Positions 51,210-54,800 of a DNA stretch of 64,000 bases are shown here, one piece after another. The DNA is from Pseudomonadota bacterium (GTDB taxonomy: Bacteria > Pseudomonadota > Alphaproteobacteria > Rhodospirillales > Magnetospirillaceae). The DNA lies in NCBI GenBank assembly GCA_021782815.1, contig JAJXUO010000010.1, forward strand, positions 1 through 64,000, given 5' to 3'. The number at the start of each line of letters is the position of its first letter. Positions within the stretch are counted from its first letter, which is position 1. The translations under genes and the position numbers were made by a program. The notes under the pieces are model-generated. The model saw nothing but the letters and a program-made list of their open reading frames with translations. It was not told the DNA's origin and ran no database searches.

Positions 51210-52247
51210 ATGCCCGTTGCCTCCAATGCGTCGCCTTCGTCCGCCGCCCCTCCCGCCGACCTGCCGAGCGTGGTGGAATTCCACCATTCCGTCTTCGCCA
51301 AGATGGAAGACTGCCATTTCCAGATCAACCACGCCACCGGCGAGGCCATGCTGTGCGTTACCATCGCCAGCAACCAGGCGCAATTGCCCTTTCCCGGCCT
51401 GATCCGCGAATTCAAGCTGGACGAGCACGACCGCCAGATGCTGGACCTGCTGTCCGACGGCCTGAAATTTGTCGGCTCCCTGCGCCTTGGCGACCCTTTG
51501 CCCAAGGAAATCCTCACCGGCGAAGCCACCTGGGAGCTATCGCCCCGGCATGAGCGCATCGCCCATCAGCGGGTTTCGATGCAGCTGGTGAACTGGTTGA
51601 CCGGGGTGGACGACCTGATTACCGACCCCGACGCCCTGATGCAGCTGGCCGATGATCCCGGCACCAAGAGAAAGGTGAACGAGGCCTTCGGCGAAGCGGC
51701 GGAACGGCTGGGCCTGGGCCGCGAAAACAAGCAGCAGATGGTGGGCTATGTGGAGAAGCTGGCGCACGAGCTGGCCTATATCGAGGCCCTGCGCGACAAG
51801 TTCGCCCATGTGCTGGATATTCAGAACAAGGTGGACGGCCTGCGCAAGGTCTACAGCCGCGAACGCTCCATCGCCGACATGATCGACCAGATCCGCAAGC
51901 TGCTGGAAATCGCCGTCAAGGACTTCAAGCGCCGCTTCCTGGAGATCGACGCCCAGACCGGCGAAATCCTTTCGGTGCTGCGCAATCTGGAAAACCAGGT
52001 GCGCTTCATCCGCTCCATCCGCGACGATCTGCACGTGCGGCTGATGGCCTGGGACGACCTGATCCACGAATGGCGCAAGGTGGAGGTGTGCGTTTCCTAC
52101 CACATCAACAACACCTTGAGCCGCATCTACCAGTTCCTGGCCCCCCGCTTCATGAAGGTGGACGACTGGGTGCTGATGAACAAGCTCAAGGAGCAGAAGG
52201 AAAAAACCAAAAAAGCCGCCACCACCGCCAAAGTGCTGATCTGGTAG
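51210..52247 (+). CDS. Helical cytoplasmic protein, function unknown
   Basis: A 345-residue protein with no signal peptide or TM segment. After about 50 polar residues it is mostly long amphipathic helices (KQQMVGYVEKLAHELAYIEALRDKFAHVL, RKLLEIAVKDFKRRFLEID). Coiled coils are likely, and the tail is Lys-rich. I recognise no family; similar unnamed proteins may exist in related spirilla. It is followed by the accessory island. ATG 51210 has GGAGCAGAGCC just upstream. Confidence 0.65.
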   Translation: MPVASNASPSSAAPPADLPSVVEFHHSVFAKMEDCHFQINHATGEAMLCVTIASNQAQLPFPGLIREFKLDEHDRQMLDLLSDGLKFVGSLRLGDPLPKEILTGEATWELSPRHERIAHQRVSMQLVNWLTGVDDLITDPDALMQLADDPGTKRKVNEAFGEAAERLGLGRENKQQMVGYVEKLAHELAYIEALRDKFAHVLDIQNKVDGLRKVYSRERSIADMIDQIRKLLEIAVKDFKRRFLEIDAQTGEILSVLRNLENQVRFIRSIRDDLHVRLMAWDDLIHEWRKVEVCVSYHINNTLSRIYQFLAPRFMKVDDWVLMNKLKEQKEKTKKAATTAKVLIW

Positions 52248-52332: not shown

Positions 52333-52378
52333 GGCCTATTTGGTAAACTGTCGCCGTAACTCTACTGTCGCCGTAATT
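52333..52378 (+). repeat. Left direct repeat of the RAYT module
   Basis: A 27-bp unit (52333-52359) with core GTAAACTGTCGCCGTAA, followed by a second partial unit ACTGTCGCCGTAATT (52364-52378). The 27-bp unit is repeated in the same orientation at 53758-53784 with one difference. Confidence 0.85.
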
Positions 52379-52422
52379 CAGATTATAATTTAGCATTCGC
52401 AAACGTTATCTCTGGAGCAAAA

Positions 52423-52932
52423 ATGCATATTGAACAGACTATAAGCTGGACCGCAGTCGCAGCAATAATTGTATTCGGTCTCGGCCAGTTATCAACCATT
52501 TTGTACAGAGTTTTAGAGGCTAGGCGCGAGAGAATGCACTTCGCGGAGGCGATTTGCGCCGATCTTAATCGAGTAATTTCCCTAAGTGGCGAGGCATCTT
52601 CTGTCGATCGCTTCAATTCATTTGTGGACAAATGCTCTATAGATATTTTAAATTCCTATGCAATACCTTTATATAAAGCACCACCTCTAGACGCAAATGT
52701 GGAAAAAATTTCAATATTGCCGGCGCATATTATCGAAGAAGTTGTCCATGCTTACGGTTACATGGCAAGGATGAACGCTTTAATAGAACATTTCAAAAGC
52801 AAAGAATTTTTGTCAGCCCCGTACTATGTACACGAATCGATGAAAGAAATATTGAAAAAAACAAACTCAGAATTTTTAGAAAAATCAAAAAAAGCTATTG
52901 AATTACTTGGAAAATATCGCAACAAAAAATGA
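52423..52932 (+). CDS. AT-rich membrane-anchored protein, function unknown (cargo of the RAYT module)
   Basis: A 169-residue protein with a TM helix at about 9-29 (WTAVAAIIVFGLGQLSTILY), then a Lys/Glu-rich helical cytoplasmic part. Its base composition is far more AT-rich than every neighbour, and codons such as ATA, AAA and TTA are common, a sign of horizontal origin. No family is recognised. GGAG lies 6 nt before ATG 52423. It lies between the left direct repeat and the transposase, so it travels with them. Confidence 0.6.
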   Translation: MHIEQTISWTAVAAIIVFGLGQLSTILYRVLEARRERMHFAEAICADLNRVISLSGEASSVDRFNSFVDKCSIDILNSYAIPLYKAPPLDANVEKISILPAHIIEEVVHAYGYMARMNALIEHFKSKEFLSAPYYVHESMKEILKKTNSEFLEKSKKAIELLGKYRNKK

Positions 52933-52970
52933 GCGTGACAGGACTGTTTAATGCCGTATATTACGGACAT

Positions 52971-53051
52971 ATTACGGTGACAGTTTACTTTTCTCGAATT
53001 ACGGTGACAGTTTACTTTTCTCGAATTACGGTGACAGTTTACTTTTCTCAA
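52971..53051 (-). repeat. Three tandem 27-bp repeats in inverted orientation
   Basis: Units at 52971-52997, 52998-53024 and 53025-53051, two identical and the third differing in its last bases, each ATTACGGTGACAGTTTAC plus a CTTTTCTCGA-type end. The core is the reverse complement of the direct repeats at 52333 and 53758. They lie just 5' of the transposase gene, in REP-like arrangement. Confidence 0.9.
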
Positions 53052-53073
53052 GAGTTCGATCACCCTCCAGATT

Positions 53074-53784
53074 ATGTCTCGTATCGCTCGCCTCGTCGTC
53101 CCCGGTGTTCCCCACCATGTCACCCAGCGCGGCAACCGCCGCGAGACGGTGTTCTTCACCGACGATGATTACCGCCTTTACCGCGGATTTCTGTCCGAGG
53201 CGGCGGTGAATGCCGGGGCCGAAATCCTGGCCTATTGCCTGATGCCCAACCATGTCCACGTCATCCTGATACCGGGTGATGCCGACGGTTTACGACGCAC
53301 CTTCGCCGACACGCACCGGCGCTATACGCGGGCGATCAACGCCCGTCATCGCTGGACGGGCCATTTGTGGCAGGGCCGGTTCGGGTCGGTGGCGATGGAC
53401 CAACCCCATCTGCTGGCGGCGGTGCGCTACGTCACACTCAATCCGGTGCGGGCGCGGCTGGTGTCGAAGCCCGAAGATTGGCCGTGGTCCAGCGCCCGGG
53501 CGCATCTCTCCGGCCGCGATGACGGGCTGGTGAGGGTTGCGCCGCTGCTGGAACGGATCGGCGACATCGCCCCGTTCCTGACGCAAGAGAGCGAGGACGA
53601 TACCGCCTACGCAGCGCTTCGACGCTCGGAAACCACGGGCCGTCCGTTGGGACACGACGACTGGCTTCGTCAATTGGAGCGTGACTTTGCCCGCCCGCTC
53701 AGGCCGCAAAAGCGCGGCCCCAAGCCGGGCACCAGCATCGCGATGAATGCCGAACCCGGCCTATTTAGTAAACTGTCGCCGTAA
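53074..53784 (+). CDS. REP-associated tyrosine transposase (RAYT, TnpA-REP)
   Basis: A 236-residue Y1/IS200-like HUH transposase. The metal-binding HUH motif is His60-Val-His62 in MPNHVHVI, and the catalytic Tyr is expected in RYVTLNPVRARLV (Tyr119). The N-terminus MSRIARLVVPGVPHHVTQRG, EILAYCLMPNH and the WPWSSARAHL region define the RAYT group. Such enzymes cut and join REP hairpins as single strands. The last codons LFSKLSP and the stop are read from the right direct repeat. Confidence 0.93.
   Translation: MSRIARLVVPGVPHHVTQRGNRRETVFFTDDDYRLYRGFLSEAAVNAGAEILAYCLMPNHVHVILIPGDADGLRRTFADTHRRYTRAINARHRWTGHLWQGRFGSVAMDQPHLLAAVRYVTLNPVRARLVSKPEDWPWSSARAHLSGRDDGLVRVAPLLERIGDIAPFLTQESEDDTAYAALRRSETTGRPLGHDDWLRQLERDFARPLRPQKRGPKPGTSIAMNAEPGLFSKLSP
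53758..53784 (+). repeat. Right direct repeat of the RAYT module
   Basis: A 27-bp copy of 52333-52359 with one base change (TTTAGTAAAC against TTTGGTAAAC). It overlaps the 3' end of the transposase gene and provides its stop codon. Confidence 0.88.
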
Positions 53785-53900
53785 TTTAATTTAAATTAAG
53801 CAGATCAAGTCGCGCAGTCCAGCGCGAGAAACGCGCAAAATCGCTTATAACTCGCAACAATGCGCCCCCCTTTTCGTCTCCCATGGGATACAATACACCC

Positions 53901-54191
53901 ATGATCGAAATCCGACAGACCGCCGCTTTTTCCGATTGGTTCGACGGGCTGAAGGATCGGCAGGCATAGGCGCGAATCAATGTTCGCATCCGCCGCTTGT
54001 CCCTTGGGAATCCAGGCGACGTGAAGCCGGTCGGTGAAGGTGTCAGCGAACTGCGGATCGATTATGGCCCTGGGTATCGGGTCTATTTCCTCCAGCGCGG
54101 TGAAGTGCTGGTGGTGCTTTTGGCCGGCGGCGACAAACGAACTCAAGGCCGGGACATTCGGACGGCCCTGGAACTGGCAGCCGATCTCTAG
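53901..54191 (+). pseudogene. HigB/RelE-like toxin interrupted by an in-frame amber codon
   Basis: The frame from ATG 53901 encodes a typical small phage-related killer protein: MIEIRQTAAFSDWFDGLKDRQA, then TAG at 53967-53969, then ARINVRIRRLSLGNPGDVKPVGEGV, ELRIDYGPGYRVYF and LLAGGDKRTQGRDI to a normal stop. Both halves match the RelE/HigB family, and only codon 23 is wrong, so a single substitution would restore it. Unless amber is suppressed, no toxin is made. TTG 53997 could start only a fragment. Confidence 0.85.
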
Positions 54192-54201
54192 GAGGCAAGA
54201 C

Positions 54202-54510
54202 ATGAGCAAGACGGAAACCCGCCCCTGGGATGCGGCAGATCATCTGAAAACCTCGGAAGACATTGCCGCCTATCTGGATGCGGCGTTCGAGGACGGCGAT
54301 CCCGCCCTTGTGTCGGCGGCGCTGGGCGATGTGGCGCGGGCCAAGGGCATGACCGACATTGCCAGAGCGGCGGGCCTGGGCCGGGCCAGCCTTTACAAGT
54401 CCTTATCGCCAGAGGGGCGGCCAGAGCTTTCAACCGTGTTGAAGGTGGTCAAGGCGCTGGGGCTGCGCCTGACAACGGCCCCCACGGATCATGGGGCGCA
54501 TGTGGCGTAA
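54202..54510 (+). CDS. HigA-like antitoxin (addiction module antidote protein)
   Basis: A 102-residue DNA-binding antidote with a Cro/C1-type HTH: GMTDIARAAGLGRASLYKSL and ELSTVLKVVKALGLRL. It belongs to the family paired with phage-derived Gp49-like/HigB toxins. A strong AGGAGG precedes ATG 54202, which is 10 nt after the toxin stop. It appears intact although the toxin is not. Its last base starts the ATACCAA end of repeat C2. Confidence 0.9.
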   Translation: MSKTETRPWDAADHLKTSEDIAAYLDAAFEDGDPALVSAALGDVARAKGMTDIARAAGLGRASLYKSLSPEGRPELSTVLKVVKALGLRLTTAPTDHGAHVA

Positions 54511-54656: not shown

Positions 54657-54800
54657 AAGGTCTTCGGCCCCCTTCTCCGCCGGATTGCGCTATGATCACC
54701 TTCTGATTGCCGGGCACTGAGGTTAAGCCAGCCCGCCCCAGCCGCAGGGCGCCCCCGCCCGGGATCGATCCGGACGAGGGCGGTTTGGCGACGCCGATGT

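What the first reader, a model, noticed from the sequence alone, without database searches (positions are those of the whole stretch)
52333..53784. RAYT module carrying a passenger gene between direct repeats
A REP-associated tyrosine transposase and an AT-rich unknown gene lie between 27-bp direct repeats (52333-52359, 53758-53784) that differ at one base. The right repeat supplies the end of the transposase gene. RAYTs are usually domesticated single genes without cargo, so a two-gene unit bounded by matching ends looks like a mobile composite.
Basis: partly seen in the sequence, partly recalled or inferred. Interest (0 to 1): 0.65.

Follow-up and report, generated by a model that had tools for sequence, protein, structure and literature searches.

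The report
Mobile element beside an orphan gene
A small jumping gene sits just behind an AT-rich gene of unknown origin, and the matching 27-base repeats are copies of the jumping gene's own end rather than the ends of a two-gene transposon; relatives elsewhere show that these ends often mark the edges of captured toxin-immunity genes.

Summary
A 236-aa Y1/HUH transposase gene and an AT-rich 169-aa ORF lie between 27-bp direct repeats that differ at one base, and the right repeat encodes the transposase's last residues. The composite-module reading is not supported. The transposase has its own inverted ends: three tandem 27-bp left ends (52971-53051) and the right repeat (53768-53786). This is an IS-like unit of about 816 bp with the AT-rich gene outside it. 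The left repeat is a solo right end; such copies stand without the module elsewhere in the genome, and the motif occurs in 27 of 119 genomes, including one with no such transposase. The ORF has one copy and no convincing homologue. The transposase is best filed as TIRYT (TnpA-Y1 subclass 2.1), not a REP-associated RAYT. A wider pattern emerged: in many Alphaproteobacteria these ends sit at GC drops, directly behind AT-rich genes (an Imm39 and a SUKH immunity gene among them), and at junctions of Rhs/FHA toxin-tip cassettes. In three genomes neighbouring cassettes become alike exactly at the end's outermost base. The ORF may be an orphan immunity-type gene; its co-mobility with the transposase is unproven.

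The parts
52333..52359 (+). Left direct repeat: a solo copy of the element's right-end terminal repeat, outer end facing the AT-rich ORF
   Evidence: core GTAAACTGTCGCCGTAA; same 24-nt unit with unrelated inner flank at C97 and (shorter) C7
52364..52380 (+). Partial extra copy of the right end (ACTGTCGCCGTAATTC)
   Evidence: family D2; such truncated tandem copies recur in relatives
52423..52932 (+). AT-rich orphan ORF, 169 aa, probable N-terminal membrane helix and otherwise helical; possibly an immunity-type gene (inferred)
   Evidence: no family, no homologue; low-confidence model
52971..53051 (-). Left end of the element: three tandem 27-bp copies of the terminal repeat, inverted relative to the right end
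   Evidence: D1, I1, I2, I5
53074..53784 (+). Y1/HUH transposase, 236 aa, TIRYT type (NHVH, WQ, YVTLNP motifs intact)
53758..53786 (+). Right direct repeat = right end of the element, overlapping the end of the transposase gene

Best explanation
The interval is an IS-like TIRYT element (52971-53786: left terminal repeats, HUH/Y1 transposase, right terminal repeat) that lies 39 bp behind an AT-rich, horizontally acquired orphan gene. A solo copy of the element's right end (52333-52359) marks the other border of that gene. The direct repeats are copies of the terminal repeat, not the ends of a composite transposon. Shown: the ends and their orientation, conserved catalytic motifs, solo copies elsewhere in the genome, a decayed second element in the genome, and the same cargo-free element in many Alphaproteobacteria. 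Inferred: the transposase acts on single-stranded terminal repeats, as HUH/Y1 enzymes do, and can join one end to new DNA, leaving solo ends at the borders of acquired AT-rich segments. Inferred and weaker: the AT-rich gene is an orphan immunity-type gene, as several genes in the same position in other genomes are.
For: Own inverted ends; 16 motif copies, solo copies at C7, C97, C118 and a transposase relic at C44; LE-transposase-RE units without cargo in other genera and two near-identical element copies in G014; HUH, W and Y motifs of subclass 2.1; ends do not fold. Outer flanks are AT-rich: 23 of 129 against 3 of 267 gene-end controls. AT-rich co-directional genes end 15-133 bp before the left end in other genomes, among them Imm39 and SUKH. 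Rhs and FHA tips adjoin the repeats more often than expected.
Against: No transposition was observed. No empty site for the element or the ORF is available; the same-genus contig ends inside the variable stretch. The ORF matches no immunity family and has no toxin next to it. The HTH of subclass 2.1 was not detected.
Confidence: 0.7

Rival explanations
1. Two-gene composite: the transposase moves the whole 52333-53786 segment, using two right ends in direct orientation, with the AT-rich gene as cargo.
For: GC changes sharply at both repeats, and both borders of the AT-rich segment are outer ends of terminal repeats.
Against: Single copy; no homologue of the ORF elsewhere; right ends occur alone; intact relatives carry no cargo between their ends.
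Confidence: 0.08
2. Chance neighbours: the element, a solo end and an acquired gene all collected in the same permissive spot between purD and tadA, with no mechanistic link between the repeats and the gene.
For: purD and tadA abut in relatives, and the whole 3.8-kb stretch, including a broken higB and a 345-aa gene, is variable.
Against: AT-rich DNA lies preferentially on the outer side of these ends in two data sets (49 of 74 and 37 of 54 single-orientation sites, p 6e-5 and 4e-4), and neighbouring cassettes in three genomes diverge exactly at the repeat's outermost base, which random co-residence does not predict.
Confidence: 0.35

Closest known systems
TIRYT / TIRtron (Di Nocera et al. 2013, PMC3733652; TnpA-Y1 subclass 2.1 of Quentin et al. 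2018, PMC6006769)
   Same: HUH NHVH, W-Q, Y..LNP motifs; about 238 aa; long terminal inverted repeats that are not REP hairpins; motif GGTGACAG close to the published GGGGWSAS; repeats also found as singles, dimers and groups
   Different: Tandem left ends, a right end that overlaps the gene's end, and recurrent position behind AT-rich genes and at toxin-tip junctions, which I did not find described; no HTH detected by Pfam
RAYT / REPtron (REP-associated tyrosine transposase, PMC2817692)
   Same: Y1 transposase of the same superfamily; single gene between inverted repeats; dispersed repeat copies in the genome
   Different: The repeats do not form hairpins and lack the GT(A/G)G head; copies are few
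Orphan CdiA-CT/CdiI and Rhs tip-immunity arrays (PMC4927057, PMC3482391)
   Same: AT-rich immunity-type genes next to mobile-element ends; relatives of this element's ends sit at cassette junctions
   Different: No toxin tip next to the window's ORF; the ORF is not in a known immunity family

Membership tests
TIRYT / TnpA-Y1 subclass 2.1 | HUH NHVH, W[EQ]/FQ and Y[IV]xLNP motifs, length near 238 aa | tested here: met
   (NHVH, LWQ, YVTLNP; 236 aa) against the table
TIRYT / TnpA-Y1 subclass 2.1 | Terminal inverted repeats flank the gene | tested here: met
   95% complementary 20-bp arms at 53024-53043 and 53767-53786
TIRYT / TnpA-Y1 subclass 2.1 | GGGGWSAS motif in the repeats | tested here: inconclusive
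   GGTGACAG here, 7 of 8; some relatives read GGGGACAG (L089)
TIRYT / TnpA-Y1 subclass 2.1 | C-terminal helix-turn-helix domain | tested here: inconclusive
   conserved C-terminal tail but no HTH hit in 15 members by Pfam
RAYT / REPtron | REP hairpin with GT(A/G)G head flanking the gene | tested here: not met
   folding energies of the four ends no better than shuffles; sequence lacks the head
RAYT / REPtron | NCBIfam REP_Tyr_transpos above cut-off | tested here: inconclusive
   79.5 bits against 80
Composite transposon with cargo | Same genes and ends at a second site or genome | tested here: not met
Composite transposon with cargo | Empty site in a close relative | tested here: inconclusive
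   only the larger purD-tadA insert could be bounded
Polymorphic-toxin immunity gene (for the 169-aa ORF) | Match to an immunity family or position behind a toxin tip | tested here: not met
   No Pfam/NCBIfam family; no toxin gene adjacent in the window. Function itself not testable here

The most novel reading that the evidence does not exclude
A widespread alphaproteobacterial TIRYT family supplies the breakpoints by which AT-rich toxin-immunity (and other acquired) cassettes are inserted and displaced: each cassette starts at the outermost base of a terminal repeat, and the window's orphan gene is one such captured immunity cassette.
Probability: 0.27. Interest if true: 0.8.

Novelty: new member of a known kind. 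Interest (0 to 1): 0.5.

Why it matters
It corrects a tempting composite-transposon reading. It also turns up a testable family-level pattern: the ends of an HUH transposase family recur at the exact junctions of polymorphic-toxin tip and immunity cassettes. How such cassettes are displaced and collected is an open question for which homologous recombination and unspecified transposases have been invoked (PMC4927057). If the enzyme proves to cut and join at these ends, it would be a concrete agent for toxin-immunity turnover.

Tried and rejected
Composite transposon: rejected for lack of a second copy and because of solo ends. Classical REP hairpins: rejected by folding. Homologues of the 169-aa ORF: none; the one weak class-level hit (G305, E 3.6e-4, three stops) lies antisense to a hydrolase gene and was rejected; phrog_34533 at E 0.0034 was not pursued. 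Structure of the ORF: single-sequence model too poor to search (pLDDT 51). Empty site through the 345-aa neighbour: no synteny; through purD/tadA: only the larger insert could be bounded. Rfam: nothing. A literature search for a link between Y1 transposases or REP-type repeats and polymorphic-toxin cassettes found none in the held library, which does not show that none exists.

Full report
Observation. The two 27-bp repeats exist as described (26 of 27 identical; 33 bp at 91%), as do the transposase ORF 53074-53784 and the AT-rich ORF 52423-52932. GC falls to about 0.28-0.5 within the ORF segment against about 0.6 on both sides. An ORF of that length occurs in none of 1000 dinucleotide shuffles of the segment, and a GGAG lies 5 nt before its ATG, so it is very probably a gene.

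What the repeats are. A repeat search shows three further 27-bp copies in tandem at 52971-53051 in the opposite orientation, 95% complementary to the right repeat. The transposase is thus bounded by its own inverted ends, 52971-53786, and the AT-rich ORF lies outside them. The core GTAAACTGTCNCCGTAA occurs 16 times in the genome with no match for the reversed control. Copies stand at C7 (single), C97 (three), C118 (beside a remnant of the transposase 3' end) and C44 (beside a deletion derivative of the transposase). The solo right ends share only about 22-24 nt, (CT)ATTTGGTAAACTGTCGCCGTAA, with unrelated inner flanks. The left repeat of the finding is of this solo type.

Distribution. The transposase family has matches in 39 of 119 genomes and the terminal motif in 27 of 119; the same-genus genome G001 has 14 motif copies and no transposase hit. 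The 169-aa ORF has no match in 118 relatives, in GTDB contigs or viral contigs by close search, in plasmids or phages, or in 384 other genomes sampled from the class apart from one spurious hit. The composite occurs once in its own genome. In other genera intact elements are left end - transposase - right end of about 720-790 bp with nothing else inside, and G014:C58 has two near-identical copies of the transposase element at different positions.

Locus history. In several relatives purD and tadA are convergent and separated by only 5-25 bp. In the window 4.2 kb lie between them. The same-genus genome aligns at 91% from window position 54750 through tadA and then runs into a contig end. The finding therefore sits in a variable insert, but no clean empty site for the element or the ORF could be shown.

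Family. The protein has the HUH motif NHVH, WQ and YVTLNP, and is 236 aa long. These fit TnpA-Y1 subclass 2.1, which Quentin et al. say probably corresponds to the TIRYTs of Di Nocera et al. (PMC6006769, PMC3733652). The ends do not fold better than shuffles and carry no GT(A/G)G head, so the label REP-associated is not apt. No HTH was found by Pfam in 15 members, which leaves that subclass feature open.

A wider pattern. Surveying terminal repeats elsewhere showed them at GC steps. With gene ends of the same loci as control, 23 of 129 outer flanks are more than 12 points below locus GC, against 3 of 267 (p 1.5e-9). The AT-rich side is the outer side of the repeat in two data sets. Genes ending 15-133 bp before the left end of the transposase element are often AT-rich and co-directional. 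One is an Imm39 protein (L376, E 1e-32) and one a SUKH protein (L359, E 7e-9). A DUF2247 gene lies 37 bp from a solo repeat (L245); DUF2247 is listed as an immunity family by Zhang et al. (PMC3482391).

Toxin cassettes. Rhs tips lie near the repeats or the element (about 20 bp to 1.4 kb away) in Bradyrhizobium (L337), Robiginitomaculum (L342), Mesorhizobium (L345), a genome titled only 'Bacterium M00.F.Ca.ET.205.01.1.1' (L356), Novosphingobium (L365) and G025. In 49 GTDB genomes searched for the Rhs core, 3 repeat loci have one within 2 kb, with about 0.04 expected. FHA-type tips lie on the same contig as a repeat, within a few kb, in 5 of 8 genomes that have both, with about 0.05-0.08 expected; one of these is C44 of the window's own genome. 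In G020, G025 and Robiginitomaculum, neighbouring cassettes are unrelated up to the outermost base of the repeat and alike from there inward, for about 27 bases in G025 and much further in the other two.

Reading. The best-supported account is an IS-like TIRYT element next to an acquired orphan gene, with a solo right end on its other side. That the transposase joins single ends to new DNA, and that the orphan is an immunity-type gene, are inferences from the family pattern and were not tested here. The AlphaFold2 model of the orphan is too poor to help.

Noticed in passing
window 53901-54510: A HigB-like toxin frame (TIGR02683) is broken by an in-frame TAG at 53967-53969 (codon 23), while the antitoxin frame (TIGR02684) beside it is open.
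   Followed up: partly
L093 2852-2930, L096 3080-3230, L208 3147-3312, window 52343-52380: Terminal repeats often carry stutter arrays: tandem copies truncated on the inner side that all finish with the same outer end plus one to three flanking bases (for example GTCACCGTAATCC repeated). This may be a trace of how the enzyme works.
   Followed up: no
L261 1231-6660; L260 5549-8000; L342 1968-7136: Displaced FHA and Rhs toxin-tip cassettes start at the outermost base of a terminal repeat, each following an AT-rich immunity-position gene or another cassette fragment.
   Followed up: partly
L209 2054-2248; L208 2405-2482: Pairs of inverted terminal repeats about 60 bp long, resembling REPINs or MITEs, occur in the same-genus genome G001, which has no matching transposase.
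   Followed up: no
L089 9868-9975: One of the two near-identical transposase copies in G014:C58 is interrupted by a roughly 120-bp insert whose sequence recurs on the same contig.
   Followed up: no
window 51210-52247: A 345-aa protein of unknown function with one or more dispersed relatives in 37 of 61 genomes searched and a second copy at C102 of the own genome; neighbourhood not conserved.
   Followed up: partly
L093 3157-3877; L089 11158-11846: Nucleotidyltransferase/HEPN-like pairs lie between terminal-repeat clusters or beside transposase copies in G011 and G014, again a toxin-antitoxin-type gene at this element's ends.
   Followed up: no
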